Assembly (NCBI GenBank): GCA_003132865.1
Contig: PKYZ01000307.1
Coordinates: 1 to 23,426 of the forward strand
Direction: 5' to 3'
Source: Bryobacterales bacterium
Lineage (GTDB): Bacteria; Acidobacteriota; Terriglobia; Bryobacterales; Bryobacteraceae
DNA length: 23,426 nucleotides
The translations under genes and the position numbers were made by a program. The notes beneath the pieces are model-generated. The model was not told the DNA's origin and did not search any database. It saw only the letters and a list, made by a program, of their open reading frames with translations. Of the stretch, positions 6,058-21,609 are shown in pieces. How positions within the stretch are numbered: position 1 is the first letter of the stretch; every line of letters begins with the position of its first letter.

Positions 6058-7584
6058 TCAGCGCGTGATGCGGACGGTCGTTTCCTTCGCGTGGAGGGTC
6101 AGCACTTTCGTCTTAGGCTCCCACTCGATGTCGCCGCCGGTGACCGACTTCGGGCTCCAGGCGCCCAGCTTCAGCCGTTCGGTGGAGACGCTGTCGAATT
6201 TGGTATAGGCGATCGCGTCGCCTCCGTATTCGATGCGCTGGATCACCGAGGTCGTCCGCAGCAGATGATTCTGGTCGTCGGGCGCGAGTTCGGGGAATGA
6301 CGCCATGGCGCGCAGGTAATGCCGGACGTAATCGCCGTAGCCATCGGTGAGCCAGTTGTCGTCGCGTGGATAACGGTTCTTGCCGTCCGTATCCACCATG
6401 TACGTGGCCCAGTTCAAGCGGCGTATGGCGGCATCCTTCAGTGTCGAATCCCCGGTTTTCTCGCAGTAGAGCAGCTCCACGGACGCATGGCGCGAAGTGT
6501 GACTGTTGCCGGGCACTTTGTATGCCGTTTGCTCGTTGATCGGGATCACGCCGAACTTTTCCCATTCGTGGTTGGCGAAGGATTGATAGCTCCAATCCAG
6601 GATGAAGGCCGCATCCTTCTTTCCCTGGGCGTCCCAGGCAGGATGTTCGAGGATGTATCGCGCCAGAGTGTCGGCGTTAATCTCGGTATCCGACCAGGCT
6701 TCGGTCGGAACGTCTTCGAAGAACGGGCCCCACTTGTTGGTCTTTATGGGGTAAGCCTTGAGCCAGGCGCTAACTATATCGCGGGCCTGGGCATATTTCG
6801 CGGCGTTGCCCCCATCGAGAGCGATCAGATCGTCGAACAGCAGCAGCGCTCCGGTATAGTTGCTGGTGTAAGTGGCGGCGAAAGTCTTGCCGTTCTTGAC
6901 CACCTTGTGGACTTCGCCGGTTTGGGCGTGGACGCGGAATGGCCAGGGCGAGTTGTCGCCGTCGCCCGGCTTCACTCGGGCTGCCAGAGTGCCGGCGATG
7001 CCCAGGGCCGCATCGAGGTACTTGCGGTTGCCAGTCATCTTGTACAGCCCTACCAGCTCCGCTCCGAAACTGGCGGCCTTGTCGGGTTGCAGGAAGCCCT
7101 TGCCGGCGCGCATGTCTCCGTCGTAGACGCCCGAGTGGAGCACAGTGTTGTAAGGATACGGGAGGCTGCCCCACAGGTCGTTCTTCGCGGAGAAGCCGTG
7201 GGCCAGCCAGTAGTCGGCCATGTACGTCATGTTGTCGCGTACGCTGGTGTCGCCTAGGTAGCCGTACAGCAGGTTCCACGACGAAAGCGCCATGTTGATC
7301 TGGTCGCCTCCGAGACCGCGCGGATCTTCCTCGTTGGGTTTCCAGACCTGATGCTGCATGTACATGGGGACGCCGTTGGGGCACTGGCGCATGTCCTTCC
7401 AGAAGTTGAAGAGCAACCGGATCACATGGTCGTAGGCCTGCGAAGGACCGGTCCCATACCAGGGTACGATCTTTCCGGAAGCATCGGCCTGGATGTCGTG
7501 ATAGCCGAGTTTTTCGGCGCGTGCCGCGACGCCCGGCGCCACCAGCAGCGCCACTGCGACAAAGAATTGGGAGTACGGTTTCAT
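6058..7584 (-). CDS. Secreted hydrolase-like protein, paralog P1
   Basis: P1 has 508 residues and a signal peptide (residues 1-23, cleavage near ARA-EK). The body is helical, with paired repeats such as LYKMTGNRKYLDAALGIAGT, which suggest an (alpha/alpha)-barrel like six-hairpin glycosidases. The motifs PGDGDNSPWPFRV, PFFEDVP, INEQ, SHTSRHASVELLY and LTDGYGDYVRHY recur in the other three copies in this window. A C-terminal beta-rich region of about 90 aa, starting near LLRTTSVIQRIEYG, is shared with P2 and P4. It is probably periplasmic and acts on a glycan. No family signature allows a substrate call. It starts 3 bp after P2, with GAAGG before the ATG, so the two are co-translated. Confidence 0.7.
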   Translation of the reverse strand: MKPYSQFFVAVALLVAPGVAARAEKLGYHDIQADASGKIVPWYGTGPSQAYDHVIRLLFNFWKDMRQCPNGVPMYMQHQVWKPNEEDPRGLGGDQINMALSSWNLLYGYLGDTSVRDNMTYMADYWLAHGFSAKNDLWGSLPYPYNTVLHSGVYDGDMRAGKGFLQPDKAASFGAELVGLYKMTGNRKYLDAALGIAGTLAARVKPGDGDNSPWPFRVHAQTGEVHKVVKNGKTFAATYTSNYTGALLLFDDLIALDGGNAAKYAQARDIVSAWLKAYPIKTNKWGPFFEDVPTEAWSDTEINADTLARYILEHPAWDAQGKKDAAFILDWSYQSFANHEWEKFGVIPINEQTAYKVPGNSHTSRHASVELLYCEKTGDSTLKDAAIRRLNWATYMVDTDGKNRYPRDDNWLTDGYGDYVRHYLRAMASFPELAPDDQNHLLRTTSVIQRIEYGGDAIAYTKFDSVSTERLKLGAWSPKSVTGGDIEWEPKTKVLTLHAKETTVRITR

Positions 7585-7587
7585 TGT

Positions 7588-9237
7588 TCAACCTTCAATG
7601 ATGATCTCGCCGGAGCTCACGTGCCGGATCTGCAGTACCCAGTCGCCTCCGCCCAGGGGCCGGAGCGTGTAGCCCTCCGGTTTGGCGCTGCCATCCTCGG
7701 CAAGAGCCGCCCCGCCCGCGGTGATCATGGACGGCTTAAAGCTCAGCCGTAGAACTTCCGTGGCGGCGCCATCGAAGGTCCGGTACTCGACGCTGTGTTC
7801 GCCGTATCTTACCGTCTGCACCACGGAAGTGGAGCGCAAAATATGGTCCTGGCCGGCGGGGGCGAATTCCGGAATGGCTCCCATGGCCCATTGGAAGTGG
7901 CGCAGGTAATCGGAATAGCCGTCGCTGAACCAGTACGAATCGTTGTAGTCCAGGCCGCAGCAGGCGATCCGGCCGTCCGGCGCAGCGAAGTACGTGCCGT
8001 AATTCAGGCCGCGGAAGGCGTCTTCGCGGGCCTGCCCATCGCGCGTTTTTTCGAAGTACATGGAGCTGATGGCGGCCCAGCGGGCGGTGTGGTCTCCCTG
8101 ACCGGCGCGCGAGCAGCAGCCGAACGTGGCATCCGGCGTGGATTGTTCGTCGATGGCCTGCGCGCCGAAAAACGGTCCGCGGCCGAAGCGGAATTTCACC
8201 CAGTCGAGAAGCCGGCCGACGTGACTCACCCACTGCGGATCGACTTCGGCGGGGTCGTTGCGCGCCAGGATGTAGTACGCCGCCGCCATAGGGGTGAGTT
8301 GATTGACGTCGTCGGGGTGGCGGGGGACATCCTCGAAATAGCCGCTCCATTTGTTCCAGGCCGGGCTCTCCCGGTTCAGCGGGTGATCCACCATCCAGCG
8401 CCAAGCCGTGTGGCGGGCCTTGCGGAAGGCCTCTACGTCGCCGGCATTCAAGCGGATCAGCTCCTCAAAAAGGCGGAGCGAGCCGGCCACATCGCCTCCA
8501 TATTCTTCGAGCGCCAGAGTCACGCCGCTGCGCGCATCTACGCGGAACGGCCAGGGGGTGTGTTGGGCGTCGCCGGGGCGAACATGGCTGGCAAGAGCGC
8601 GGGCGCAGCGGATCGCGGCATCCAGGTACTTGCGGTCGCCTGTCAGCTTATAGAAGAGCGCGTAGCCGGTGCCCAGTTCGCCGACCTTGTCGGTCTCGAT
8701 TCCGCCGTAGAACTCGTGCGGCATGTCCTGAATGCAGTGGCCGTAGTCCGGCTGGTCGTCGCAGTTGGTGGCAAACGGAACGCCAGGCCAGTCCCAATCC
8801 GCCGGGGTGGTGCCGTGGGCGAGTTGGTGGTCCAGCATCTCCCGCACGGCCGCGACCGCCTCCTGGTCGCCCGAGTAGGGATACCAGCCCATCAACGAAT
8901 CGACAAAGGAGGCGAACACCATCGCCGGGTTGTGCTGCCAGTTGGCTCCTTGCAGGGTCTTGCCGTCGAAAACCGAGTTGATGAGGTAGATCTTCAGGCC
9001 CGTGCCATGGCGCGTATCGCGAGGCACCTTGTGCTCAATAAAATCCCACCCGAGATGCAGCACTTTGTCATAACCGAGGTTCTTATCGGGCTGATACCAG
9101 GCCAGCAGGCGGCCCTGCGCGTCGAGGACGGCCGGATGCCACGGCACCTGGGCATTGACGTAGACGTCTTCGGCGGCGAGCGCCGCGGGCAGGACCAGGC
9201 TCAACAGAAAAAACACGCCAAAGGTGGAACGCAGCAT
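7588..9237 (-). CDS. Secreted hydrolase-like protein, paralog P2
   Basis: P2 (549 aa from this start) has a signal peptide (STFGVFFLLSLVLPAALA) and the same architecture as P1: helical repeats (FYKLTGDRKYLDAAIRCARA), PGDAQHTPWPFRV, YFEDVP, IDEQ, GDHTARWAAI, FSDGYSDYLRHF, then a beta-rich tail (ILRSTSVVQTVRYG). It has extra Cys pairs (FGCCSR, ACCGLD). The sequence allows an ATG at 9249, but that codon lies inside the best -10 box (TATGAT). I therefore prefer the ATG at 9237, at or next to the predicted transcription start. First gene of the minus operon; divergent from the GntR gene. A role in glycan breakdown is inferred from export, fold type and context. Confidence 0.7.
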   Translation of the reverse strand: MLRSTFGVFFLLSLVLPAALAAEDVYVNAQVPWHPAVLDAQGRLLAWYQPDKNLGYDKVLHLGWDFIEHKVPRDTRHGTGLKIYLINSVFDGKTLQGANWQHNPAMVFASFVDSLMGWYPYSGDQEAVAAVREMLDHQLAHGTTPADWDWPGVPFATNCDDQPDYGHCIQDMPHEFYGGIETDKVGELGTGYALFYKLTGDRKYLDAAIRCARALASHVRPGDAQHTPWPFRVDARSGVTLALEEYGGDVAGSLRLFEELIRLNAGDVEAFRKARHTAWRWMVDHPLNRESPAWNKWSGYFEDVPRHPDDVNQLTPMAAAYYILARNDPAEVDPQWVSHVGRLLDWVKFRFGRGPFFGAQAIDEQSTPDATFGCCSRAGQGDHTARWAAISSMYFEKTRDGQAREDAFRGLNYGTYFAAPDGRIACCGLDYNDSYWFSDGYSDYLRHFQWAMGAIPEFAPAGQDHILRSTSVVQTVRYGEHSVEYRTFDGAATEVLRLSFKPSMITAGGAALAEDGSAKPEGYTLRPLGGGDWVLQIRHVSSGEIIIEG

Positions 9238-9244
9238 ACTGAAG

Positions 9245-9273
9245 ATCATACCTTTTCATGGCCGGGTTTTCAA
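9245..9273 (-). promoter_or_regulatory. Predicted sigma70 promoter of the minus operon
   Basis: Reading the minus strand, TTGAAA (9268-9273) and TATGAT (9245-9250) are separated by exactly 17 bp. Both boxes are close to consensus. Transcription would begin at about 9238, one base before the ATG at 9237, so the message would be leaderless or nearly so. The same 12-mer AGGTATGATCTT surrounds the -10 box upstream of the plus operon (13807-13818). Confidence 0.5.
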
Positions 9274-9279
9274 TTTGCC

Positions 9280-9312
9280 GCATTTCGATGTAATGTGGGG
9301 ACTGGGAAATGC
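9280..9312. promoter_or_regulatory. Inverted repeat over the GntR start, possible operator
   Basis: GCATTTC (9280-9286) and GAAATGC (9306-9312) are perfect inverted 7-bp arms 19 bp apart; the second arm contains the GntR start codon. In the RNA this could be a hairpin enclosing the ribosome site. In DNA it could be a binding site for autoregulation, since FadR-type GntR proteins usually bind palindromes in their own promoter. Evidence is positional only. Confidence 0.25.
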
Positions 9313-10019
9313 ACACGCGCACCTTCCGGAGCGGCCGATTGAGCGAACTGGCGCTCCACGAGATTGAACGCATGGTTGCCGAGGAATTCCGGGCGCCGGG
9401 TTCCAGGCTGCCCAAAGAAGCCGAACTGGCGGACCGGCTTCATGTCAGCCGCATCGTGATCCGTGAGGCGATGAAGATCCTGGAAGACCGCGGCTTGGTG
9501 GAAGTACGCGCCGGCCGGGGCAGCTTCACCGTGGCCCCCAAGCCGGATCGAGTCAAGGAGTCGTTGATGCGGCTGTTCCGCGATCAGCCCATGCCCACGG
9601 CCGAAGAAATGGAGCGCTTGCTCGAGTTGCGCCAGGTGCTGGAGGAGACCACCGCCAGTCTGGCGGCCGTGCGGGCCACCGAAGAGGATCTGACGGAGAT
9701 GGAAGCCGCCTTGCGCCAAATGAAGGAAGACGGCCTGGGCCTGGATGAAACCATTGCCGCGGACCTGCGTTTCCACCGGGCCGTGATGCGCGCGGCGCAC
9801 AACCGGTATTTCGAGATCGTCCTCGATCCGCTGACGGAGGTATTCCAGCAGCAGATCAAGCTCACCAACAGCTATGACACCGGTTGGGAGTTGCATCGCA
9901 GTATTTTCCAGGAGATCCGGGCGCGCAATCCAATCGGAGCGCGGCAGGCGGTGCGCCGCCTGATGAAGCAGACACTATCGGATTCGCGCAAGGCGCTGAA
10001 AGAGTTCAGCCAGGATTGA
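9309..10019 (+). CDS. GntR-family regulator, FadR/FCD subfamily
   Basis: This 236-residue transcriptional regulator has an N-terminal winged helix-turn-helix (about 10-75), with PGSRLPKEAELADRLHVSRI and REAMKILEDRGLVEVRAGRG typical of GntR proteins. The all-helical C-terminal FCD effector domain (about 95-225) contains ADLRFHRAVMRAAHN and ELHRSIFQEIRARN, holding the Asp/His residues that commonly bind a metal and a small acid. Family members usually repress sugar-acid or organic-acid catabolic genes until the ligand binds. It is transcribed away from the minus operon, with about 70 bp between start codons, and sits between the two halves of the cluster. It is therefore the likely local regulator, with a sugar acid as the likely effector (inference). 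Confidence 0.92.
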   Translation: MHTRTFRSGRLSELALHEIERMVAEEFRAPGSRLPKEAELADRLHVSRIVIREAMKILEDRGLVEVRAGRGSFTVAPKPDRVKESLMRLFRDQPMPTAEEMERLLELRQVLEETTASLAAVRATEEDLTEMEAALRQMKEDGLGLDETIAADLRFHRAVMRAAHNRYFEIVLDPLTEVFQQQIKLTNSYDTGWELHRSIFQEIRARNPIGARQAVRRLMKQTLSDSRKALKEFSQD

Positions 10020-10030
10020 GCGCATCCCGA

Positions 10031-10285: not shown

Positions 10286-10325
10286 CCCCGAATTCCCAAT
10301 TCCCCCTTTTTTCCCCCGGGACTCC

Positions 10326-10355
10326 TTGACAGCCTCCCCAAACATATGATATTTA
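10326..10355 (+). promoter_or_regulatory. Predicted promoter of the TonB receptor gene
   Basis: A perfect -35 hexamer TTGACA (10326-10331) is followed after 18 bp by TATTTA (10350-10355); TATGAT at 10345 is too close to pair with it. A start of transcription near 10362 leaves a leader of about 20 nt containing a strong GGGAGGAG (10371-10378) before the ATG at 10383. Only hexamer matching supports it. Confidence 0.4.
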
Positions 10356-10382
10356 CGAATGATCGGTTCAGGGAGGAGTTCA

Positions 10383-13300
10383 ATGTCGCATCGTTCTATA
10401 TCCGGCTTCTCGCGGACGGGCCTGACGAGGAGCTTTTTTCTCGCTCTGGCATGCGTTTGCCTGGCGAGCTTCGTCAACGCACAAATCAACACGGGCCGCA
10501 TCGACGGCACGGTCCGGGACGCCAGCGGCGGGGTGGTTCCCGAAGCGCGGGTCTCGGCCACCAACGACGCCACCGGCGCCGTCACATCCACCGAGAGCTC
10601 CGCGGCGGGCGACTACGTGGTGAACTTTCTGGTGCCCGGAACATATCGCGTATCGATCGAAAAACAGGGTTTCCAGCGCAACGTGACGTCCGGCGTGGTC
10701 GTGAACGCCGGCGGGATCACGCGCGTGGACTCCAACTTGACGCTGGGCCAAATGCAGCAGGCCGTGCAGGTGGCGGCCAATCCGCTGGCCGTGGCCACGG
10801 AGACTTCCGAACTGTCCAAGACATTCGACTTCAAGCAGATCGATGATCTGCCCAACATCGATCGCAATCCGCTTTATCAGATGAACCTGCTGCCGGGCGC
10901 CAACAACGACGTGGGCAGCGGCAATTACGGCACAAACGGGGGCGAGAACGGCTCAGCCGTGGGATTGACCCGCTCGCAAACGGTCTCGCTGGGAGGCATA
11001 GACGCCAACGCCAATAGCGTCTTCATCGAAGGCATCTTCAACCGCGAACCGCAGAACGCTTACATCGGGCTGGTCCCGCCGATTGAAGCCATCCAGGAAG
11101 TGCAGGTCTACACCGGCAAATACAATGCGGAATTCGGGTTTTCGGGCAGCGCGGTCATCAACGTGGTGACCAAGAGCGGCACCAACGAACTTCACGGAGC
11201 GCTGTTCGAATACCTGCGGAACAACGCTGCCGATGCCAAGAATTTCTTTGCTCAACAGGCCACGCCTTTCCGCCGCAACCAGTTCGGCGGCGCTGTGGGC
11301 GGACCGATCGAAAAGAACAAGCTCTTCTTCTTCGGCGACTATCAGGGTACCCGGTTCGTCACCAGTTCGCCAGGCTTTACCACCGCTCCGACCGCCAAGA
11401 TGTACAACGGCGATTTTTCCGAGTTGTACGATCTCACGCAGCCTCTGGACGCGGCTGGGAACACCTACGGCCAGATCTACGATCCGTTTTCGCGCGTAAC
11501 CGACGCGAACGGAAACGTGACGTCGGCGACGCCCTTTCCGGGGAACATCATTCCAAAATCTCGCTGGGATGCGGTGGCGGCGAAGATGAACAACGACCAG
11601 GTCTTCGGCGTAGCGAATCTGCCCGGCATCAGCAACAATCTCTACTACCTATACAGCAACCAGCAGAACGTGAATCAGGGCGACGGGCGCGGGGATTATT
11701 ACCTGACCGATCGCGACCGCTTTTTCTACCGTTACTCCCAAATGGATTCGACCAGCAACAACGCCACTTCGGTCAACCAGTTCTGGCAGGCCGGCCAAGC
11801 CGACTCGAACAGCGTGAACCGGAACATGCAGCTTACCTACCTGCGCACCATTGGAGCCAGCATGTCGAACGAACTGCGGCTGGGCTACAACCGGACGCAC
11901 GTCAACACCAGCAACAAGACCATGAGCAAGGCCTGGAACAATTATTACGGGCTTCCGAACGGCAACCTGGGCGACCCCATCACGCAGGGTATCTTTGAAG
12001 TCGATCTCTCGCCAATTCACAACATCGGCGATCCGGACTGGGTGGCATTCATCGTGAGCAACACGCTGGCTCTCACGGAAAACTTCACATGGGTCAAGGG
12101 AAGGCACACCATCAAGTTCGGCACGAGCCTGAACCATGTGGAGGATACTTCCGCCGACACGATTGGCGGCGACGACCCGCGCGGCAGGATCAGCTTCGAT
12201 CCGGCCATGACTTCGTACAGCGGAACCGCGGCGCCGTACGCCTATCCCAGCTTCCTGCTGGGCACGCCGACCTCCATTGCCCGAGCGCGTTTCGTGGGCG
12301 GCTGGCCTTATCAGACTTACTGGCAGAACGCCTGGTATGCGCAGGACGATTTCAAAGTCCTGCCGTCATTGACGCTGAACCTTGGCCTGCGCTACGACAT
12401 GTTCACGCGGCCGATCGAACGCTACAACCGGCAGTCCAACTGGGACTCCCAAACGAACCAGCTCGTGGTAGCCACCAACAGCGATCGCAGCCCGGGACTC
12501 AACCTGGATAAGGGTGACTGGGGGCCGCGTCTGGGCTTCGCCTGGAGCCCGGACCGGGGCAAGACCAGCGTTCGCGGCGGATACGGAATCTCGTATTGGC
12601 AAGCTTACTGGTCCGGCCCGCTGACGATTCTCGGGTTGACTTATCCGAGCTATGTGAAGCAGCAGTTCTTGACGCCGAACAACCTGACACCGTCCTTGAC
12701 CCTTGCTCAGAACGGACTTCCCCTCGCGAGCGCGCAGTACGACAGCTCGGGAAACCTGATCATCCCCGACAATGCGGTCATCCGCGGAACTGCCATCAAC
12801 TGGAAGAATCAGCGAGTGGACCAGGGCACCATCAACTTGGCGCGCGAGCTCCGGCCCGGCATGATTCTCGACGTGGGATATGTGCACGTCCAGGGCATCC
12901 ACAACAATCACACGGTAAACATCAACCAAGCGCCTCCGCAGCCGGCCGGAGCCGACTACAACCTGGCCCGGCCGCTGTACAGCCAGTATCCGCAGTTGGG
13001 AGACGTTCCCGTACAGTTCGCCACGGCCGGCAGTTGGTACGACGCTCTGACCGCCAGTTTCACGGCCAGCCTGACAAAGTACGTCAATGTGTACGCGACG
13101 TACGCGCATGCGCGCAGTTTTTCGAACGGGAACAACATCAACCCGGCCGACATTTGGCAGTATTACGGGCCCACGCCGGAGGATATTGCGCATACGCTCA
13201 ACGCGCAGGTAGTTGTGCAGCTCCCGTTCGGGCGCGGCCGGGCCTATTTCTCCAACATGAGCCGCTTGCAGGATGCGGTTTTCGGCGGCTGGCAATACGC

Positions 13301-13721
13301 AGGACTGATTCACGTCCGCAGTGGCACGCGTTTCGACGTTTATTCCGGAGTGAGCCTGCTGAACAACGGTCAGGGCAACCGGCCGAACCGGATTTGCAGC
13401 GGAGCGATCTCCAACCCGACCCCGAACATGTGGTTCAACCCGAGTTGCTTCATCGATGACACCATCCCCCAAACTTACGGGAATGCGGGCATCAACCCGC
13501 TGTACGCGGATGGCTTGCAACAGCTCGATTCTTCGCTTTCGAAGACCTTCAATGTTACCGAGCGCGCCAACTTGCAGCTTCGGATTGACGTTTTCAATAC
13601 TTTCAATCACACGAACTTCGCCGCGCCGGACTCGACGGTTGGCGATGCCACGGTCGGGCAGGTTTTCAGCACGTCGGTCGACCCGCGACGCATGCAGTTC
13701 GGCTTGCGGCTGCATTTTTGA
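10383..13721 (+). CDS. Oar-like TonB-dependent outer-membrane receptor
   Basis: This 1112-residue outer-membrane transporter has a signal peptide (LTRSFFLALACVCLASFVNA). A carboxypeptidase-regulatory-like beta-sandwich follows (about 35-115: GRIDGTVRDASGGVVPEARV ... GTYRVSIEKQGF). A plug domain follows (about 120-270, with GIDANANSVFIEGI, VPPIEAIQEVQVYTGKYNAE and SGSAVINVVTKSGTNELHG). The rest is a long beta-barrel ending in FGLRLHF, with the terminal aromatic residue expected for barrel assembly. The length is normal for the acidobacterial Oar/CarboxypepD_reg type. I chose the ATG at 10383 over the one at 10359 because GGAGG lies 6 nt upstream. It probably imports an oligosaccharide, energised by TonB/ExbBD encoded elsewhere. 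No SusD partner is present. Substrate is unknown. Confidence 0.93.
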   Translation: MSHRSISGFSRTGLTRSFFLALACVCLASFVNAQINTGRIDGTVRDASGGVVPEARVSATNDATGAVTSTESSAAGDYVVNFLVPGTYRVSIEKQGFQRNVTSGVVVNAGGITRVDSNLTLGQMQQAVQVAANPLAVATETSELSKTFDFKQIDDLPNIDRNPLYQMNLLPGANNDVGSGNYGTNGGENGSAVGLTRSQTVSLGGIDANANSVFIEGIFNREPQNAYIGLVPPIEAIQEVQVYTGKYNAEFGFSGSAVINVVTKSGTNELHGALFEYLRNNAADAKNFFAQQATPFRRNQFGGAVGGPIEKNKLFFFGDYQGTRFVTSSPGFTTAPTAKMYNGDFSELYDLTQPLDAAGNTYGQIYDPFSRVTDANGNVTSATPFPGNIIPKSRWDAVAAKMNNDQVFGVANLPGISNNLYYLYSNQQNVNQGDGRGDYYLTDRDRFFYRYSQMDSTSNNATSVNQFWQAGQADSNSVNRNMQLTYLRTIGASMSNELRLGYNRTHVNTSNKTMSKAWNNYYGLPNGNLGDPITQGIFEVDLSPIHNIGDPDWVAFIVSNTLALTENFTWVKGRHTIKFGTSLNHVEDTSADTIGGDDPRGRISFDPAMTSYSGTAAPYAYPSFLLGTPTSIARARFVGGWPYQTYWQNAWYAQDDFKVLPSLTLNLGLRYDMFTRPIERYNRQSNWDSQTNQLVVATNSDRSPGLNLDKGDWGPRLGFAWSPDRGKTSVRGGYGISYWQAYWSGPLTILGLTYPSYVKQQFLTPNNLTPSLTLAQNGLPLASAQYDSSGNLIIPDNAVIRGTAINWKNQRVDQGTINLARELRPGMILDVGYVHVQGIHNNHTVNINQAPPQPAGADYNLARPLYSQYPQLGDVPVQFATAGSWYDALTASFTASLTKYVNVYATYAHARSFSNGNNINPADIWQYYGPTPEDIAHTLNAQVVVQLPFGRGRAYFSNMSRLQDAVFGGWQYAGLIHVRSGTRFDVYSGVSLLNNGQGNRPNRICSGAISNPTPNMWFNPSCFIDDTIPQTYGNAGINPLYADGLQQLDSSLSKTFNVTERANLQLRIDVFNTFNHTNFAAPDSTVGDATVGQVFSTSVDPRRMQFGLRLHF

Positions 13722-13815: not shown

Positions 13816-13840
13816 CTTTTACGAGTAACCGGAGAGCCGA

Positions 13841-15136
13841 GTGCGCTTTTGGCTGACCCTAACCGTTGTTGGTCCCCTCTTTCTGGCAAGGCCCGCCCGG
13901 CTTGCCGCTGAAAACCCGGTAATCGGCAATCACCGCGCCGTCTACGATTCCAAGGGGATGTTGCTGCCATGGACGTCCTGGAGGGATGCCCTGGCGCGAG
14001 AAATGAATTGGTATCTGCAGTGTCCCGTGGAAAGCGGGTATCCCCGCTTCGTCTACGTGACGTTCATGCGCGGCGACTACCAGCCGGTGGTTTCACGGTC
14101 CGACATCATCCCCTCCATGCAGAACGGCATGGGGATCGTTTCTTACCTGAAATATTACGCCTGGAGCGGCAAGAAGAACCCGAAGGTCCTTGAATTTGCC
14201 CGGTACATGGGCGACTACCTGATCAAAGAGAGCCTGACGCCGGATGCCGGCAAATTTCCCCGGTTTACGCGTTCGACCGGCAAGCGCGCGCAATTTCCGC
14301 AGCCTCCGGATAGCGGCACACAAGCCGACAGGCCCTACGAAATCGAGCCTGACAAAGGCGGCATCGCCGGTTATGCGCTGGCCCTGCTCTATGAAGAGAC
14401 GCAGGACCAACGGTACCTGGAACAAGCTCTGCAAAACGGCCGGGTTCTGGCCGCCAATATGGGTCCCGGCGATGATGAGCACTCGCCGTGGCCGTTCCGC
14501 GTGGATTACCGCACGGGCGAGTCCCGCGGTCCCGTTTCCGCCAACATGTCGTTCAACCTGCGGTTGTTCGACAAGCTCATCGAAAACGGGCACACGGAGT
14601 TCAACGATCCGCGGGCAAAGCTATGGGACTGGATCAAGAAACACCAGATACCAAACCTGGCCAAGAGCGGCTCGCTGTGGGTGCAGTTCTTCGAGGACCA
14701 CCAGGAGCCGGACAACCGCAATGCCTGGTCGCCGCTGAACCTGGCCCGCTATCTGATCGAGAAGAAAGAAACGCTCGATCCCGAGTGGAAGCCGGATGCC
14801 CGCGCAATGATTGAGTTTGCCATTCACAACTTCACCAGCATCCGGTATGGCGTGCCGGTCTGCGGAGAACAGACCTACGACAAGGAACCGTGGGGAGGCG
14901 TGCTTTCCACTTATGGCGCAGTGCTCGCCATGTACTCGGCGGCCACCGGCGACGGCGAATACAAGGCGCTGGCCAACCAGGCCTTGAACTTTGTTCTGTA
15001 CGCAGTCAACGAAGATGGCTGCCCTCGGGAAAGCGCGGTGCGCCCGGGACGCGGGGGCTGGCAGGAAGATGCGCACACTGATAAGATTCACAACTTCGTT
15101 GATGCCATGACGGCCTTTCCAGAGTGGGCAAATTGA
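13841..15136 (+). CDS. Secreted hydrolase-like protein, paralog P3
   Basis: P3 (431 aa) is the shortest of the four paralogs. It starts at a GTG with GGAG 6 nt upstream and has a signal peptide (LTLTVVGPLFLARPARLAA). Shared motifs are DSKGMLLPW near the N-terminus, YEETQDQRYLEQALQNGRVL, MGPGDDEHSPWPFRVDYRTG, QFFEDH, GEQTYD and a final AMTAFPEW. It lacks the C-terminal beta-rich region of P1, P2 and P4, ending where that region would begin, and HTSR is replaced by LSTYG. Helix repeats suggest the same (alpha/alpha) fold. First gene of the plus operon; its stop overlaps the start of the epimerase gene. Periplasmic glycan processing is inferred. Confidence 0.7.
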   Translation: MRFWLTLTVVGPLFLARPARLAAENPVIGNHRAVYDSKGMLLPWTSWRDALAREMNWYLQCPVESGYPRFVYVTFMRGDYQPVVSRSDIIPSMQNGMGIVSYLKYYAWSGKKNPKVLEFARYMGDYLIKESLTPDAGKFPRFTRSTGKRAQFPQPPDSGTQADRPYEIEPDKGGIAGYALALLYEETQDQRYLEQALQNGRVLAANMGPGDDEHSPWPFRVDYRTGESRGPVSANMSFNLRLFDKLIENGHTEFNDPRAKLWDWIKKHQIPNLAKSGSLWVQFFEDHQEPDNRNAWSPLNLARYLIEKKETLDPEWKPDARAMIEFAIHNFTSIRYGVPVCGEQTYDKEPWGGVLSTYGAVLAMYSAATGDGEYKALANQALNFVLYAVNEDGCPRESAVRPGRGGWQEDAHTDKIHNFVDAMTAFPEWAN

Positions 15137-16029
15137 GCAATCCACGATTATTGATCGTCGGCGCCAGCGGATTCCTGGGGCAGCACATCGGGCGGAAGGC
15201 CGCTTCCGCCTTCGATGTGTACGAAGCCGATATTGCAACTCCCCCAGGCAAGCGTGGTCTCGCCATGGATATTACGTCGGCCGCCAGCGTGAATGCCGGC
15301 TTCGAGTGGGCCGCGCCGGATGCGGCGATCCTGTTGGCCGCCATTTCCGACATCGACGAGTGCGAACGCCGCCCGGAACTCGCCCAGGCGGTCAATGTGC
15401 GCGGAGCCGAACATGTTGCCGAGGCCTGCGCGCGCAGCAGAGCCAGGCTCGTGTTCACGTCCTCGGCAGCGGTTTTCAACGGTACCCGGCACGGCTACAA
15501 CGAGTCCGACCCACCCACTCCGATGAGCGTCTACGGGACTACCAAGGCGCTGGCTGAAGACACGATCTCGCGGAAGCTTCCGTCAGCCCTGATTCTCCGC
15601 CTGGCGCTGGCGATCGGTTTCGCGGAAGGGTCGGGCACCAATGCGATGTTGAATAAGTTCGCCGCCAGGCTGCGTGCCGGCGAGTCCGTTTCGCTCCCCG
15701 ATTACGAATACCGCAATCCCATCGATGCGGAAACGCTGAGCTGTTTCCTGCTGGAGTTGTTGAACTGCGGCGGCGCGGCCGGCATCTTTCATGTGGGCGC
15801 AACAGAGTCCATCTCGCGGTTCGAACTGGGCGTGAGACTGGCTGAAAAAATGGGCCTCTCCCCACGTCTGGTCCATCCTCAAACCCAGCCGCTGCCCGGG
15901 CGAGCCCCCCGCGGTCCGGACCATTTCCTCCTTACCGGCAGGCTCCGCGCCACTTGCCGGACGCCTGTCCCCAGTTGCAGCGAAATCATAGAAAGAGCCA
16001 TCCATGGATCTCCCCAAAGCAATTCATGA
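15124..16029 (+). CDS. RmlD-like NAD-dependent epimerase/reductase (extended SDR)
   Basis: The 301-residue protein has a Rossmann opening LLIVGASGFLGQHIG (GxSGFLG), a family-typical VNVRGAEHVAEAC, and the catalytic YGTTK (Tyr-x3-Lys) preceded by FTSSAAVFNG. The C-terminal part is shorter than in UDP-glucose epimerases. This is the pattern of dTDP-4-dehydrorhamnose reductase-like extended SDRs that act on nucleotide-linked or free deoxysugars. Two starts are possible: GTG at 15124 (13-bp overlap with P3) and TTG at 15133, whose TTGA overlaps the P3 stop by 4 bp. Neither has a good ribosome site, so translation is probably coupled. It overlaps the downstream aminotransferase by 26 bp. Confidence 0.82.
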   Translation: MGKLSNPRLLIVGASGFLGQHIGRKAASAFDVYEADIATPPGKRGLAMDITSAASVNAGFEWAAPDAAILLAAISDIDECERRPELAQAVNVRGAEHVAEACARSRARLVFTSSAAVFNGTRHGYNESDPPTPMSVYGTTKALAEDTISRKLPSALILRLALAIGFAEGSGTNAMLNKFAARLRAGESVSLPDYEYRNPIDAETLSCFLLELLNCGGAAGIFHVGATESISRFELGVRLAEKMGLSPRLVHPQTQPLPGRAPRGPDHFLLTGRLRATCRTPVPSCSEIIERAIHGSPQSNS

Positions 16030-17194
16030 ACTCGAATACGGCCAAGGCTCGGTATACGGGCCGGAAGAAGAGGCAGCCCTCGGCGAGGTGCTGCGAGCCA
16101 ACGCGCCTTCCTGCGGGCCGCAGGTCAAGAAATTCGAAGAAACGTTCGCCAGCTATTGCGGTGTGCGATACGGGCTGGCGGTCACCTCCGGCACGGCTGG
16201 GCTGCAGCTTGCGGCCATCGCCGCCCGCCTGGAGCCGGGCGATGAAGTGATCACTACTCCGATCAGTTGGATCTCCACCGCCAACGCGGCGGCTGTGCTG
16301 GGTCCGAAGATTGTTTTCGCGGATGTCGATCCGCGGACGCTGAATCTCAATCCGGCCTCGGTGATCGAAAAGATCACCGAGAGGACTAAGGCGATTATCG
16401 TCGTCCACCTGTACGGCCAGTGCTGCGATATGGACCCGATCATGGAAGTGGCGCGCGAGCGAAACATCCTGGTGATCGAAGACTGTGCGCACGCCGCCGG
16501 GGCCGAATACAAAGGCCGCCGGGCCGGATCGCTGGCCGATATCGGGGTCTTCAGCTTCCACCAGCAGAAGAACATGGTGACGCTGGGCGAAGGCGGGATG
16601 CTCACGGCAAACCGGAAAGATCTCTACGAGCGCATGCTGTCGTTCCGGTCGCTGTGCTGCCTGACCTACGATCCCAAGGGCAAGTATCTGCCCCTCGACG
16701 AATCCAAGTTCCCCATGGGCAAGCGCTACTGGTATCTGGACTTCGACGATATCGGCTTCAACTTCCGCATGACGGACGCGCAGGCCGCGGTGGGCCTGGC
16801 CCAGTTCCAAAAGCTGGAGAGCTTCAACGCCCGCCGCATCGAGATCGCCAATCAGTACTGCGAGCGCCTGCGCGGCATCAATGGCCTGACCACGCCACAC
16901 GTCTCTCCGGATGTAAAACATGTCTTCCACATTTACTGTGTCCTGGTGGAGCCCGATTTCCGCCTGAACAAAGAAGACTTCATGTGGGAGCTCTACACCG
17001 CCAAGCGCATCAAGGTTTGGTCCCATTACATGCCTATCCACCTGACCACGGCGTACCGAAAGTTAGGCCACGGCGAAGGGGAGTGCCCGGTGGCGGAGGC
17101 TCTGTTTCACAAGTACGTCAGCCTGCCCATCCATCCGCGGATGACGGACGCATCCATTGCTTACGTGACTGACAGTATCCGGGCACTGGCATGA
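16004..17194 (+). CDS. DegT/DnrJ/EryC1/StrS-family PLP aminotransferase
   Basis: This 396-residue sugar aminotransferase-type enzyme has all family landmarks: CGPQVKKFEETFASYCG (37-53), TSGTAG phosphate-binding loop (61-66), Asp160 in VIEDCAHA for the PLP ring nitrogen, Lys189 in FSFHQQKNMVTLGEGGM as Schiff-base lysine, and FNFRMTDAQAA. Members transfer an amino group to or from a keto-sugar, usually nucleotide-linked. An insert around GKYLPLDESKFPMGKRYWYL is longer than in typical members. The gene lies between an RmlD-like reductase (26-bp overlap) and a GHMP kinase (ATGA overlap), which supports a sugar rather than an amino-acid substrate. Whether it builds or degrades an aminosugar cannot be told. 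Confidence 0.9.
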   Translation: MDLPKAIHELEYGQGSVYGPEEEAALGEVLRANAPSCGPQVKKFEETFASYCGVRYGLAVTSGTAGLQLAAIAARLEPGDEVITTPISWISTANAAAVLGPKIVFADVDPRTLNLNPASVIEKITERTKAIIVVHLYGQCCDMDPIMEVARERNILVIEDCAHAAGAEYKGRRAGSLADIGVFSFHQQKNMVTLGEGGMLTANRKDLYERMLSFRSLCCLTYDPKGKYLPLDESKFPMGKRYWYLDFDDIGFNFRMTDAQAAVGLAQFQKLESFNARRIEIANQYCERLRGINGLTTPHVSPDVKHVFHIYCVLVEPDFRLNKEDFMWELYTAKRIKVWSHYMPIHLTTAYRKLGHGEGECPVAEALFHKYVSLPIHPRMTDASIAYVTDSIRALA

Positions 17195-18591
17195 TGGATT
17201 TCGAGAAACAAGTAAGCGAGTTCCGCGCCGGCAGCCATTTCTTTGCGCGCGGCCGTCCTGTCTTTATCGGCAGGTCTCCCGGGCGCCTGGACCTGATGGG
17301 CGGCAACGTGGACTATACCGGCGGCCTGGTATTCGAGGCGACCATCCGCGAAGCCACGTGGGCCGCTGTACAGTTGCGTCCCGACCGGCGAGTCGGCTTC
17401 TGGAACCCGCAGGTGGCGGCGCAAGGCTGGCGGGAACGGCCCGAGTTCGAGTTGGACGATCTGGTGGATGAGGAAACCGTCCGCCGCATGGTCAACCGGG
17501 ACCCGTCGCTTCGCTGGACCGCGTATGTCCTGGGCATCTTCTACCTGCTGCGGCTCCGCTATCCTGAGGCGGTGACGAGCGGGGCGAACGTGTACATTTA
17601 CTCCGAGGTTCCGCTGAACAAAGGAGTCAGCTCTTCGGCGGCGGTGGAGGTGGCCGTCATGAAGCCGGCGGCGCGCGCCTATGGGCTCGATCTGCACGGC
17701 ATTGAACTGGCGGAAGCCTGCCAGTGGGTTGAGAATGTCATTGCGGAGTCCGCCTGCGGCATCATGGACCAGGCCGCGGCCGTGCTGGGCGATGAAGGGT
17801 ATGTCCTCCCGCTTCTGTGCCAGCCCTGCCAGTGTCGTCCGCTAGTGCGGCTGCCTGCGGGCCTGTGTTGCTGGGCCGTGGATTCCGGGGTCAGCCACGC
17901 CGTCACCGGAATCGAGTACGAAGCCGCGCGGGCGGCCGCCTTCATGGGCTACAAGCTCATTTGCGATTGGGAAGGATTGACGGTGGCTCGCGATCCGAAC
18001 AGCCGCATCCCGCGCTTCACCGATCCACGCTGGCGCGGTTATCTCTCGGAGGTGACGCCGTCCCTCTACCGCTCGAAATACGAACAACGCCTTCCTGAAA
18101 TCATGCCGGGCGCCGAGTTTCCGCAGGCCGGGCAGTTTCACGCGGACCCCTTCACGGCGGTGCGTCCGGAGATCCGTTACCGCGTCCGCAACTGCACGCG
18201 CTACGCCTGCGAGGAGAACCAACGCATTCAACTATTTGCTGAACTGGCGCGCGGCTCAGCGGAGCAAGCCAGCGAGGACGCCTGGCGCCTGATGGGCGAT
18301 CTGATGTATCAATCGCACTACTCCTACACCGAATGCGGGCTGGGGAACGAGGCCACGGACCTGCTGGTCGATCTGGTCCGCGAACGAGGCGCCGACCGCG
18401 GTCTCTACGGCGCGAAGGTGACGGGGGGCGGGGCCGGCGGGACCGTGGCGGTGCTGGGCCGTCGAGATGCGTACGAAGCCTTCCGCGACGTGGTAAGTCG
18501 CTATGGCGAGCTGCGCCAAATGCAACCTTATGTATTCGAGGGCAGTTCCATGGGCGCCGATCGCTTCGGCGTGGTTGTGCAGGAGGGATAA
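17191..18591 (+). CDS. GHMP sugar kinase, L-arabinokinase/galactokinase-like
   Basis: The 466-residue kinase carries the three GHMP motifs: PGRLDLMGGNVDYTGG (30-45, replacing galactokinase PGRVNLIGEHTDYNGG), VPLNKGVSSSAAVEVA (140-155, ATP loop) and AKVTGGGAGGTVAVLG (408-423). CGIMDQ (189-194) holds the catalytic Asp193. The MGG-x-x-DY-x-G-x-LV form of motif 1, the IREATWAAVQ after it, VDSGVSHAVTG and FMGYKLI match, from memory, the kinase half of plant L-arabinokinase rather than galactokinase. It would phosphorylate a free sugar at C1, with arabinose, galactose or a uronic acid as candidates. The ATG at 17191 overlaps the aminotransferase stop by 4 bp (17194 is an equally possible start). 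Confidence 0.85.
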   Translation: MMDFEKQVSEFRAGSHFFARGRPVFIGRSPGRLDLMGGNVDYTGGLVFEATIREATWAAVQLRPDRRVGFWNPQVAAQGWRERPEFELDDLVDEETVRRMVNRDPSLRWTAYVLGIFYLLRLRYPEAVTSGANVYIYSEVPLNKGVSSSAAVEVAVMKPAARAYGLDLHGIELAEACQWVENVIAESACGIMDQAAAVLGDEGYVLPLLCQPCQCRPLVRLPAGLCCWAVDSGVSHAVTGIEYEAARAAAFMGYKLICDWEGLTVARDPNSRIPRFTDPRWRGYLSEVTPSLYRSKYEQRLPEIMPGAEFPQAGQFHADPFTAVRPEIRYRVRNCTRYACEENQRIQLFAELARGSAEQASEDAWRLMGDLMYQSHYSYTECGLGNEATDLLVDLVRERGADRGLYGAKVTGGGAGGTVAVLGRRDAYEAFRDVVSRYGELRQMQPYVFEGSSMGADRFGVVVQEG

Positions 18592-19538
18592 TGGCGAGCG
18601 CCGCTGAAACCAGTACGCAGACTCACAAGGGACGGATGCTGGGGTACTTCACCCTGCTGGCGATGGCCTCTCTCATCTGGTCCGCCCAGGGCACGGCCGT
18701 GAAATTCCTGGACCGGCACATGGGCCCCATCGCCATCACCTTTGTACCCTTCTACATCACCACGCTGTTGTTCGTGCCGCTGCTCATTCGCAAGCGGCGC
18801 GCCAATCCCCAGGCCTCGCGGCCCACTTGGTCCGACTGGGGCAAGTTCGCCCTGGCAGGCGTGCTCGGGCAGGTGCTGGCCCAGTTGGGCATGACTTGGG
18901 GTATCTCCAAGTCGCTGGCATCCAACGGCGCCGTCCTGAACCTGATGATCCCCGTGATTACAGCCGTGCTGGCGTCCTTCATGCTGCGCGAGAAGCTCAC
19001 CAAGCTCCGCATCGTTTCTCTGGCGGTCGGACTAGTGGGCGTGTTGCTGATGTCGGTTCAGGATCTGCGCGAAAGCTCGTTTTTGGAAATGAAATATATT
19101 GTGGGCAACGGCCTCATCCTGGTCGGCTGCTTCGGGTCGTCTTTTTACAATACCTACTGCAAGGGGCTGATGCGGCGTTTTCAGGAAATTGAGATTCTGA
19201 TCTTCAGCTATATCACGGCTTCGCTGGCCAGCCTGCCGTTGCTGATTTGGGCGGAGCCCTTCCACTGGAGCGTATTCGCCGCTTTCGACTGGAAGTCATG
19301 GGCCGCGTTTGCGTTCCTGGCGATTCTAATGTACGGAGCGTCCATGCTGTTCTTCTTTGCCGCGTTAGAGCACCTGGACGTGACCGTAGCTTCCGTTTCG
19401 CTATACTTGGTCCCGATTTTCGGCGTGCTTTTGGCGGCGCTGCTGCTAGGCGAGCGCCTCAGCATGCTAGCCATGGTGGGCTCCGGGACCGTGCTGGTAG
19501 CCACGGTTCTGATCATGAAGTATGACACCAGTTATTAA
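18591..19538 (+). CDS. EamA/DMT-superfamily inner-membrane transporter
   Basis: The 315-residue product has about ten hydrophobic segments arranged as two EamA repeats. The first starts at GYFTLLAMASLIWSAQGTAV and ends near VGVLLMSVQD. The second starts at GNGLILVGCFGSSFYNTYCK and ends at GTVLVATVLIMKYD. The LREKLT and LGERLS segments before the last helix of each half are typical. Family members move small metabolites (amino acids, nucleotide sugars, sugars) across the inner membrane. The open frame extends upstream to 18333, but the ATG at 18591 has AGGAGG at 5 nt and shares one base with the kinase stop (TAATG). Substrate is presumably the sugar handled by the neighbouring enzymes. Confidence 0.88.
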   Translation: MASAAETSTQTHKGRMLGYFTLLAMASLIWSAQGTAVKFLDRHMGPIAITFVPFYITTLLFVPLLIRKRRANPQASRPTWSDWGKFALAGVLGQVLAQLGMTWGISKSLASNGAVLNLMIPVITAVLASFMLREKLTKLRIVSLAVGLVGVLLMSVQDLRESSFLEMKYIVGNGLILVGCFGSSFYNTYCKGLMRRFQEIEILIFSYITASLASLPLLIWAEPFHWSVFAAFDWKSWAAFAFLAILMYGASMLFFFAALEHLDVTVASVSLYLVPIFGVLLAALLLGERLSMLAMVGSGTVLVATVLIMKYDTSY

Positions 19539-19548
19539 AGGATCTCTC

Positions 19549-21609
19549 ATGAAACTAAGTCTGTGCGCTCTGCTCCTCTGCGCCGCTGCAGCCTGGGGCG
19601 ACGATAAGCCATTCCCGGTCATTTCCAAGGTGGATGCTACCGACATTGCGGGCCGCCCCGTCCAACTGGATGCCGAGGGCAAACTGCTTCCCTGGCCCAT
19701 GCCCGACGACATCGGGTACTCATACAGCTCACACTTCCTCACGCAGTGGACCATTCTTTGGGATCAGTACAACCGGCAACGCACCCACTACTTCTTCTGC
19801 TGCTTCGACTTCGACCGCACGACCTTCGAAATGCAGCCGGACTGGCACTGGGCCAACTCCACCGCCTACTTGCGCGCCATGATGCAGGGTTTCATCGAGC
19901 GGCTCTATCCGTACACCGGCGATGCAAATACCATCGCCTTTCTCCAGGATTTCATCGACTACGAGCTCGAAAACGGCCTCACCCCCGAGAACTACGCATG
20001 GGCGCGCGTGCCATATACGTCGGCCAATCCGGGCGACCGCCGCTACACCGGCTGGAGTCACCACGGCGAGGATTACCTGGAACCGCACGTGGTCGGCGAA
20101 GATGGCTATGCTTACCTGCGTCTTTACGAGATGACCGGCAACACCAAATATCTGCAGGCCGCTATTCGGTGCGCCGCCGCCCTGGTGAAGAACTACAAGG
20201 CCGGCGACGCGCAGAACTCGCCTTGGCCGGTGCGCTGCTATGCCCGCGACGGCAAAGTCGAGGGCCGCGGCATGGGCACTTACTCCGCAAACGTGGTCGA
20301 GCCCATCATGCTCTTCGACGAGTTGATCCGGCTCGATCAAGGCGACGTCACGCAATACCGGCAGGTGCGGCAGGCGGCCTGGGAGTGGCTGCATAAGTAC
20401 CCCATGAAGAATAACGTCTGGGTCGGCTACTTTGAGGATGTTACGCCCAGCATGGCGAACATGAACCAGGTCATTCCACTGGAATACGCTCGCTACGTCC
20501 TGCTGAATCCGGATAAAGACCTGGAATGGCGCGAGAATGCACGCAAGCTGATCGAGTGGGTGAAGACCACGCCGAAGTGGCCCAAGCACATCGTGCATGG
20601 CGCCACCATCACGAACGAACAGGGCGATGGGAAAAACTTCTGCTGCAATCTGCCGAACCAGTGCTGCGATAGCCACACGTCGCGCCTGGCAGCGGTGGAG
20701 GCGCTCTACTACGCGCGCACCGGCGATCCGGCGTACAAAGAACAAGCCTTCCGGTCGTATAACTGGGTGACGTATTTCCAGGGCATGCCTCCCGACGCGC
20801 ATGCGCCGTGGGGCGATTATCAATGGTGGTTCACCGACGAGTTCTCCGACGGCCCCAGGCGGTTGATGGATGCATTTTGGGCGGTTCCCGAATGGGCGCC
20901 GGCGGATGAGTCGCACCTGCTTGGGTCGCATTCGGTAGTTACCAAGATCGCCTACGGCAAAGGTTCGGTCACGTATTCGACGTTCGATCCTTCATCGACC
21001 GATGTCCTACGCCTGAACTTCGTGCCGGACGCGGTATACGCCGGCGGCCGTAAACTGGCGCGCAACGGCGATCTGAAGCAGGAAGGTTATACCTTCGGCG
21101 ACACTACCCACGTGCTGCGCATTCGGCACGACCACGCGCGCGATCTGGATATTCAGGGCGCCGCGTCCGAGCCCATTCCGTTGGTCGTCGATTTCGACAA
21201 TCCGCACGTGGGCGCGAACGTCGCGTTGCGCGGCCAGTATCCTTCCGGCGTCATCGACTGGGGCAGAAACCAGTGGAAGGTATGCGCGCCGCAAGGACGG
21301 ATGAGCACGTTTTCGCTCTGCGCCGCCGGGCCTGACAAGAAAGCCCAATTCCATTTCGCTTATGAGCGCATGCTCATGCGGCTGGATGTTTACAATCCCT
21401 TGAGCACGGACGCTAAAGTGACAATCCACGCGCCCGAGACGCATGATGTGACCTTCACGGTAAAGGCGCATCAGCTCAAGCGCGTCAAGACCGGATGGAC
21501 GGACCGCGTTTCGTCCGTAACCCTGGAATCCGACGTTTTGCCGTCTCTTTTATTCGACAACCTGGCTTACTCTCCCTACCTTTGGGGCGCGCCTGCCCGG
21601 TCCGAATAG
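19549..21609 (+). CDS. Secreted hydrolase-like protein, paralog P4, with extra C-terminal domain
   Basis: P4 (686 aa) is the largest paralog. It has a signal peptide (LSLCALLLCAAAAWG) and shared motifs LDAEGKLLPWP, LYEMTGNTKYLQAAIRCAAA, AGDAQNSPWPVRC, GYFEDV, TNEQ, SHTSRLAAVEALYYARTGD, FTDEFSDGPRR and the beta-rich tail starting SHSVVTKIAYG. About 135 further residues (from about 550: PLVVDFDNPHVGANVALRGQ) are absent from P1-P3 and look like a beta-sandwich, possibly carbohydrate-binding. It is Cys-rich (FFCCFDFD, FCCNLPNQCCDSH), so disulfides or metal binding are possible. I chose the ATG at 19549, with AAAGGA upstream, over 19522, which overlaps the transporter. It probably works outside the inner membrane on a glycan. 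Confidence 0.7.
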   Translation: MKLSLCALLLCAAAAWGDDKPFPVISKVDATDIAGRPVQLDAEGKLLPWPMPDDIGYSYSSHFLTQWTILWDQYNRQRTHYFFCCFDFDRTTFEMQPDWHWANSTAYLRAMMQGFIERLYPYTGDANTIAFLQDFIDYELENGLTPENYAWARVPYTSANPGDRRYTGWSHHGEDYLEPHVVGEDGYAYLRLYEMTGNTKYLQAAIRCAAALVKNYKAGDAQNSPWPVRCYARDGKVEGRGMGTYSANVVEPIMLFDELIRLDQGDVTQYRQVRQAAWEWLHKYPMKNNVWVGYFEDVTPSMANMNQVIPLEYARYVLLNPDKDLEWRENARKLIEWVKTTPKWPKHIVHGATITNEQGDGKNFCCNLPNQCCDSHTSRLAAVEALYYARTGDPAYKEQAFRSYNWVTYFQGMPPDAHAPWGDYQWWFTDEFSDGPRRLMDAFWAVPEWAPADESHLLGSHSVVTKIAYGKGSVTYSTFDPSSTDVLRLNFVPDAVYAGGRKLARNGDLKQEGYTFGDTTHVLRIRHDHARDLDIQGAASEPIPLVVDFDNPHVGANVALRGQYPSGVIDWGRNQWKVCAPQGRMSTFSLCAAGPDKKAQFHFAYERMLMRLDVYNPLSTDAKVTIHAPETHDVTFTVKAHQLKRVKTGWTDRVSSVTLESDVLPSLLFDNLAYSPYLWGAPARSE

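What the first reader, a model, noticed from the sequence alone, without database searches (positions are those of the whole stretch)
6058..21609. Four divergent paralogs of an exported, uncharacterised protein family in one cluster
P1 (6058-7584), P2 (7588-9237), P3 (13841-15136) and P4 (19549-21609) share GD-x3-[ST]PWP-x-R, FFEDV-like, [IT]NEQ and repeated TGDxKYLxxA motifs but differ strongly in length and in the presence of C-terminal domains. Retaining four copies around one TonB receptor suggests each acts on a different linkage of one glycan. I know no characterised family with this motif set, so this is the strongest candidate for a new enzyme system.
Basis: partly seen in the sequence, partly recalled or inferred. 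Interest (0 to 1): 0.8.

Follow-up and report, generated by a model that had tools for sequence, protein, structure and literature searches.

The report
Four unnamed exported glycan-enzyme relatives
A soil-bacterium gene cluster carries four distant relatives of an unnamed exported protein family that folds like known sugar-processing enzymes and keeps the same acidic residues throughout, so it is probably a new family of glycan-degrading enzymes whose substrate is still unknown.

Summary
In detail: P1-P4 are homologous (six pairwise BLASTP E-values 1.4e-31 to 1.6e-93; best shuffled control 0.007) and carry the stated motifs in relaxed form. None reaches a Pfam cut-off or an NCBIfam family; the 360 listed relatives are 'hypothetical protein' or unnamed. 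AlphaFold models of P2 and P4 are confident (pLDDT 90, 87): a twelve-helix (alpha/alpha)6 toroid plus beta domains, structurally nearest sugar 2-epimerases, then GH76 and GH105-type enzymes. Profile comparison with five such families gave no convincing placement. D307 and E368 (P2 numbering) are kept in 91/91 and 90/90 family members and 360/360 listed proteins. The paralogs are four old subfamilies, each found elsewhere too; some of those loci hold GH3, GH127, GH39, GH2 or arabinofuranosidase-type genes. Best reading: exported glycan hydrolases of an unassigned family, feeding an outer-membrane receptor and a sugar-acid plus kinase/aminotransferase pathway. Activity, substrate and 'one linkage each' are untested. 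CAZy/dbCAN could not be searched.

The parts
6058..7584 (-). P1, 508 aa, exported-looking protein of the family, toroid plus C-terminal beta domain by alignment (not modelled itself)
   Evidence: no Pfam family at E<=1, no NCBIfam at E<=0.01
7588..9249 (-). P2, 553 aa, toroid plus C-terminal beta sandwich; ATG at 9237 also possible
   Evidence: AlphaFold2 on a 58-row alignment, pLDDT 89.7, pTM 0.91; fold searches; tree
13841..15136 (+). P3, 431 aa, toroid only by alignment (not modelled itself)
   Evidence: Pfam hits below cut-off to C5-epim_C, GH88, GH127
19522..21609 (+). P4, 695 aa, toroid, beta sandwich and an additional C-terminal beta domain; likely start 19549
   Evidence: AlphaFold2 on a 38-row alignment, pLDDT 87.4, pTM 0.89; fold searches; tree
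10359..13721 (+). outer-membrane receptor (OMP_b-brl_4 with CarboxypepD_reg), proposed importer of the products
   Evidence: role inferred
9309..10019 (+). GntR/FCD regulator
5095..6042 (-). DHDPS-family protein; nearest solved relative L-2-keto-3-deoxyarabonate dehydratase (E 6e-27)
4109..5098 (-). mutarotase-like protein (DUF5107 and DUF4432 hits, both below Pfam cut-offs)
3339..4112 (-). SDR oxidoreductase (the reading frame is open to 4502; likely start 4112)
15124..16029 (+). RmlD-like NAD-dependent reductase
16004..17194 (+). DegT/DnrJ aminotransferase; nearest solved relatives perosamine synthase, then glutamine-scyllo-inositol transaminase
17191..18591 (+). galactokinase-like GHMP kinase, nearest solved relative AbGHMP (9ulx)
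18591..19538 (+). EamA transporter
21630..23012 (+). class III aminotransferase

Best explanation
P1-P4 are exported glycan hydrolases of a family not yet in Pfam, each an (alpha/alpha)6 toroid whose active site lies on the long-loop face and uses conserved carboxylates (E368 and D307, with D443, Y420 and W440; P2 numbering). They cut a glycan or oligosaccharide outside the inner membrane; the products enter through the receptor at 10359-13721 and are handled inside by the mutarotase-like protein, SDR and DHDPS-family enzyme (oxidation of a sugar and dehydration through a 2-keto-3-deoxy acid) and, on a second branch, by the kinase, the DegT and class III aminotransferases and the RmlD-like reductase. 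Shown: homology, predicted fold, invariant residues, conserved neighbourhoods. Inferred: export, hydrolysis, which residue does what, the order of steps, the substrate.
For: Confident toroid models whose 50 listed structural matches are mostly sugar epimerases, GH76, GH105-type and other glycosidases. D307 in 91/91, E368 in 90/90, Y420 in 89/89 and W440 in 89/90 family members, 4 of 4 outlying sequences included; D443 in 86/90, but only 2 of 4 outlying sequences; D307, E368, Q369, Y420, W440 and D443 in 360/360 listed proteins, which come from searches with P2, P3 and P4 only. These positions lie in, or at the edge of, the long connections between helix pairs (DSSP); that these form one face is inferred from the alternation of short and long connections. 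Hydrophobic N-termini. Of 40 proteins from other loci of the family that I chose to scan, 8 carry a carbohydrate-active domain: GH39, GH3, PF10091, GH127, GH2, GH125, CBM96, arabinofuranosidase C-terminal; the Pedobacter locus has SusD before its P1-type gene. One of 58 members each matches Malectin (E 4e-4) and CBM_4_9 (E 0.005, weak).
Against: No member has a known activity. The 40 scanned proteins were picked for conservation or closeness, not at random; 8 of them had no match and the rest include peptidases, TPR proteins and regulators; no random control was run. The toroid also serves epimerases and lyases, and the match lists hold a squalene-hopene cyclase and a DsbH-domain protein; for P4 the top Foldseek row is a virus tail protein, 7xdi_F, E 5e-7, TM 0.28/0.40. 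No profile comparison placed the family with a hydrolase family. E306, the other acid of the FED motif, is not universal (80/91). Among the 18 window ORFs scanned with Pfam there is no known glycosidase.
Confidence: 0.55

Rival explanations
1. They are exported polysaccharide lyases: the same toroid, with an invariant Tyr and acids doing beta-elimination on a uronate-containing glycan, and the SDR plus DHDPS-family genes taking the unsaturated product.
Against: The DHDPS-family gene scores far below the equivalog cut-offs; none of the 18 window ORFs scanned matches GH88 above cut-off or a KduI/KdgF-type family; known toroid lyases rely on His or Arg as well (recalled), and no toroid His is universal here.
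Confidence: 0.15
2. They are exported epimerases or isomerases of the N-acylglucosamine 2-epimerase type that modify a glycan or its sugars.
Against: That superfamily works with histidines (recalled); no His of the toroid is conserved across the subfamilies (position 387 is His in 238 of 360, mostly other residues in P3). The known enzymes are cytoplasmic (recalled), these look exported and P1, P2, P4 have beta domains. Profile match probability 53.7% or less.
Confidence: 0.1
3. They belong to a family already in CAZy that Pfam and NCBIfam do not model, so the cluster is an ordinary known system (this can be true together with the best explanation).
For: CAZy/dbCAN could not be searched here; Pfam does not model every CAZy family. 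By eye one C-terminal hairpin resembles GH127 (TGDxxY...R..YN).
Against: No PDB sequence matches beyond one helical hairpin (best E 8e-5 over 30 profile positions); names in the lists are 'hypothetical protein' or absent; profile alignment of the catalytic half to GH127 gave 0.8%.
Confidence: 0.15
4. They are non-catalytic surface glycan-binding proteins that feed the receptor.
For: Export-like, near an outer-membrane receptor, beta domains present.
Against: Strictly invariant acids and Tyr across 360 proteins are more typical of catalysis than of binding.
Confidence: 0.05

Closest known systems
N-acylglucosamine/cellobiose 2-epimerase superfamily (PF07221)
   Same: (alpha/alpha)6 toroid, closest structural match of both models
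   Different: no universal toroid His, looks exported, extra beta domains in three of four, profile probability 53.7% or less
GH127 beta-L-arabinofuranosidase (PF07944)
   Same: toroid followed by beta domains, Foldseek E 5.2e-7 for P2 and 1.1e-5 for P4; Pfam hint in 3 of 58 members, best E 1.1e-4
   Different: the Glu-x-Cys and Cys-Cys set kept in at least 90% of 19 GH127 relatives is not shared: the listed P3 set has a gap at the first CC column in 120 of 120, and P1 of the window has no CC
GH76 alpha-1,6-mannanase (PF03663)
   Different: the Asp-Asp pair kept in at least 90% of 11 GH76 relatives has no counterpart among P invariants; profile probability 22.9% or less
GH88/GH105 uronyl hydrolases (PF07470)
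   Different: the alignment that I looked at (71.6%) is long, gappy and runs into the C-terminal parts; no conserved Asp was matched to a P invariant
SusCD/TonB-linked polysaccharide utilisation loci
   Same: outer-membrane receptor, regulator, exported-looking proteins and sugar genes in one cluster
   Different: no SusD and no known glycosidase among the 18 window ORFs scanned; the depolymerase role would fall to P1-P4; the kinase/aminotransferase branch is unusual

Membership tests
(alpha/alpha)6 six-hairpin toroid superfamily | twelve helices in a toroid | tested here: met
GH127 | Pfam PF07944 match over the curated cut-off | tested here: not met
   14.2 bits for P3 and 12.8 for P4, cut-off 24.9; no hit for P1, P2
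GH127 | Glu-x-Cys plus Cys-Cys zinc/nucleophile set | tested here: not met
   kept in at least 90% of 19 GH127 relatives; no CC in P1 or P3; role of these residues recalled
N-acylglucosamine 2-epimerase | catalytic histidines | tested here: not met
   no universal His in the toroid; the role of His is recalled
N-acylglucosamine 2-epimerase | Pfam PF07221 match | tested here: not met
   no hit for P1-P4 at E<=1; not among the 14 families that any of 58 members matched at E<=0.01
GH76 | adjacent catalytic Asp-Asp | tested here: not met
   kept in at least 90% of 11 GH76 relatives; no such pair among P invariants; one of 58 members matches PF03663 at E 8.1e-5
GH88/GH105 | Pfam PF07470 match over cut-off | tested here: not met
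   14.4 bits for P3, cut-off 26.6; one of 58 members at E 0.005
any CAZy family | match in CAZy/dbCAN | not testable with these tools
   no such library here
glycoside hydrolase (function) | hydrolytic activity on a glycoside | not testable with these tools
   needs biochemistry
polysaccharide utilisation locus | outer-membrane receptor and exported glycan enzymes clustered with sugar catabolism | tested here: inconclusive
   receptor, regulator and sugar genes present; that P1-P4 are the glycan enzymes is the open point

The most novel reading that the evidence does not exclude
The island degrades a glycan that carries an amino sugar or aminocyclitol: P3 and P4 release it, the GHMP kinase phosphorylates it, the DegT and class III aminotransferases remove the nitrogen and the RmlD-like enzyme reduces the keto product, a catabolic use of enzymes known mainly from biosynthesis, with a new hydrolase family at its head. 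RmlD directly follows P3 in 4 of 10 P3-type members, and genomes with the near form of the kinase carry P genes in 6 of 8 cases against 39 of 299 overall.
Probability: 0.15. Interest if true: 0.75.

Novelty: new member of a known kind. Interest (0 to 1): 0.5.

Why it matters
The family is large (1196, 1702 and 1434 database proteins at E<=0.001 for P2, P3 and P4; overlap between the three sets not checked), was found in 39 of 299 sampled genomes of one class, and carries no Pfam domain or informative name in the lists seen, so scans that rely on Pfam or NCBIfam miss it. With named candidate catalytic residues and a compact single-domain member (P3), the claim is directly testable. If the kinase/aminotransferase branch is catabolic, it would also reveal an unrecognised way to use nitrogen-bearing sugars in soil.

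Tried and rejected
Placement by profile: Pfam, NCBIfam and PDB sequences gave only sub-cut-off or short hits. hhalign of the family and of subfamilies P1, P3, P4 against relatives of GH127, AGE, GH88, GH76 and C5-epimerase reached at most 79.5% (whole family, GH88), 77.9% (GH127; 72.5% with the larger set); the two alignments that I looked at in full were long, gappy and out of register. The comparison sets were shallow (4 to 19 sequences), so this is weak evidence of absence.

A by-eye idea that E368 matches the GH127 acid/base and D443 its nucleophile Cys was tested: the catalytic halves gave 0.8% (local) and 0.1% (global), a longer stretch 42.5% but in another register. Dropped.

C5-epimerase: P3 hits PF06662 at E 0.011, below cut-off; profile comparison 5.1% for P3, 55.5% for the whole family. 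Not adopted.

Substrate by context: loci differ by subfamily, and no single glycan fits all. P4-type loci: GH3, PF10091, GH2, GH39, GH127, GH125, CBM96. The nine-row group: RraA-like, enolase-superfamily, SDR and an unclassified family. P3: RmlD-DegT-GHMP-EamA. I first took the conserved neighbour family at L125 7553-9043 for GH30 by eye; it had no Pfam match at 1e-6, so that is withdrawn. Kinase loci fetched (annotated) did not reveal a substrate.

Literature: searches on AbGHMP, arabinokinase/GHMP, DegT-GHMP-EamA clusters, new glycosidase families in Acidobacteria, acidobacterial utilisation loci and DUF4432 (with no paper; with listings) showed nothing on this family in titles or abstract beginnings; I opened no paper. 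Absence holds only for that open-access library and those terms.

Not done: no random-region control for carbohydrate genes; no correction of the co-occurrence counts for relatedness, and their identity limits were set after seeing the lists; P1 and P3 were not modelled (two folding jobs per session); the extra C-terminal domain of P4 was not searched by itself; no signal-peptide predictor.
Full report
What was checked. The four ORFs exist as described, with two start codons in question. They are homologous beyond doubt: the six pairwise BLASTP comparisons give E 1.4e-31 to 1.6e-93 over 394-527 aligned columns, against 0.007 for the best of 30 rounds of shuffled controls.

Family and conservation. 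A scan of representative genomes returned 60 loci. With further genomes I collected 91 members of at least 330 residues. The tree (short search, SH-aLRT support only, with a warning about long branches) shows P1 (16 rows), P2 (16), P3 (10) and P4 (31) on branches with support 100, plus two further groups (9 rows, support 100; 5 rows, support 92) and four outlying rows labelled Planctomycetota, Armatimonadota, Chloroflexota and uncultured. Members occur in Acidobacteriota, Verrucomicrobiota, Pseudomonadota, Actinomycetota and Bacteroidota as labelled in the records, most of them MAGs. So the window unites one member of each of four old subfamilies; this is not recent duplication. The set P1-P2-GntR-receptor-P3-RmlD-DegT-GHMP-EamA recurs in a Terriglobia MAG (L001 and L032, one contig).

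Residues. In the 91-member alignment D307 (91/91), E368 (90/90), Y420 (89/89), W440 (89/90), Q369 (88/90) and D443 (86/90) are kept (P2 numbering); the outlying rows keep the first four in 4 of 4 but D443 in 2 of 4. All six are kept in 360 of 360 listed proteins (added to the existing alignment, and found by searches with P2, P3 and P4 only). By the secondary structure they lie in the long connections 289-317, 356-384 and 422-440 or at the helix ends bordering them. E306 is not universal (80/91), and the Cys-Cys of P2 and P4 and the His at 387 are missing in the P3 set.

Membership. Profile comparison with relatives of GH127, AGE, GH88, GH76 and C5-epimerase placed the family in none (best 79.5%, GH88); the GH127 cysteines, GH76 Asp-Asp and epimerase histidines are not met. 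Single members give weak Pfam hits to GH127 (3 of 58, best E 1.1e-4), GH76 (1, E 8.1e-5), GH47, GH88 and C5-epimerase (1 each, E 0.003 to 0.006). The PDB sequence search with the 58-member profile found 20-30 residue hairpin matches at best E 8e-5.

Surroundings in the window. Outer-membrane receptor, GntR regulator, SDR, mutarotase-like protein, DHDPS-family enzyme, RmlD-like reductase, DegT and class III aminotransferases, GHMP kinase and EamA transporter. Nearest solved relatives: L-2-keto-3-deoxyarabonate dehydratase for the DHDPS-family gene (E 6e-27), perosamine synthase for DegT (2.5e-70), AbGHMP for the kinase (2.7e-112), for which I found no paper.

Surroundings elsewhere. Of 40 proteins from the family's loci (within about 10 kb) that I chose to scan, 8 carry a carbohydrate-active domain (GH39, GH3, PF10091, GH127, GH2, CBM96, GH125, arabinofuranosidase C-terminal), one is SusD, one is an OprB porin, one a class III aminotransferase, and seven are sugar-acid or oxidoreductase/aldolase types (UxuA, enolase-superfamily, IlvD/Edd, DHDPS, RraA, two GFO/IDH/MocA); 8 had no match and the rest are peptidases, TPR proteins, regulators and others. 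The choice was not random. RmlD follows P3 directly in 4 of 10 P3-type members (window, L001, L096, L098). Two more P3 contigs end just after the gene (L056/L095 and L097), and their genomes G171 and G077 carry RmlD and GHMP on another contig that begins there. A class III aminotransferase lies near P genes in 6 of 84 loci by clustering, including Pedobacter, where it is a distant one (25% identity); L026 has another.

Co-occurrence in 299 genomes of one class: the P family is in 39 (E<=1e-20, at most four candidates scored per genome). Genomes with a full-length mutarotase-like homologue at 51% identity or more have P in 10 of 11 cases (Fisher p 5e-9); the other homologues, one broken 52% match among them, in 7 of 34 (p 0.13). 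Genomes with the kinase at 61% identity or more have P in 6 of 8 (p 8e-5); with the 43-52% form in 0 of 11. The limits were set after seeing the lists, and relatedness of the genomes was not corrected for.

Mechanism. My reading is exported hydrolases that cut a glycan, import through the receptor, and two intracellular branches. The first step rests on fold, export-like N-termini, invariant acids and the content of related loci; the rest is inference. I put 0.55 on hydrolases of an unassigned family, 0.15 on lyases, 0.1 on epimerases, 0.05 on binding proteins, and 0.15 on a family that CAZy already knows but Pfam does not.

Novelty. A new, unannotated family of a known kind, widespread in soil bacteria.

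Noticed in passing
P0122, P0132, P0161, P0208 (database proteins): Some P3-type proteins (625-742 aa) hold one P3 toroid plus part of a second in the same chain.
   Followed up: partly
L043 2-1579 and 1623-3472: A GH127 gene ends 43 bases before a P4-type gene on the same strand.
   Followed up: no
L034, L041, L044, L047, L054: P4-type genes share loci with a GH3 family (L034, L041, L044, L054) and a PF10091 family (L041, L044, L047, L054), by clustering with one Pfam-scanned example each. PF10091 holds endo-beta-1,2-glucanases as I recall, so beta-1,2-glucan is worth a test.
   Followed up: partly
L017, L119, L121, L123, L125, L127, L128 (e.g. L125 7553-9043): A neighbour family of about 480 aa is found in 7 loci of the family; the one member scanned has no Pfam match at 1e-6. 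Possibly another unannotated family.
   Followed up: partly
L024 7639-10164 and L055 9026-11473: Two members of the 58-row alignment match Peptidase_S9/esterase models (best E 9e-7); from length and N-terminus these are probably L024 and L055, i.e. esterase-toroid fusions.
   Followed up: no
L280 4287-5042, L282 14836-15675: Kinase loci without P genes in the stretch have ORFs that read like glycerophosphodiester phosphodiesterases (by eye), a possible hint at the kinase's substrate.
   Followed up: no
window 2413-2820: Short ORF with a hydrophobic start that reads by eye like the beginning of a sugar-isomerase-like protein cut short; no Pfam match at 0.01.
   Followed up: no
window 826-1215 (-): RRM-type RNA-binding protein.
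   Followed up: no
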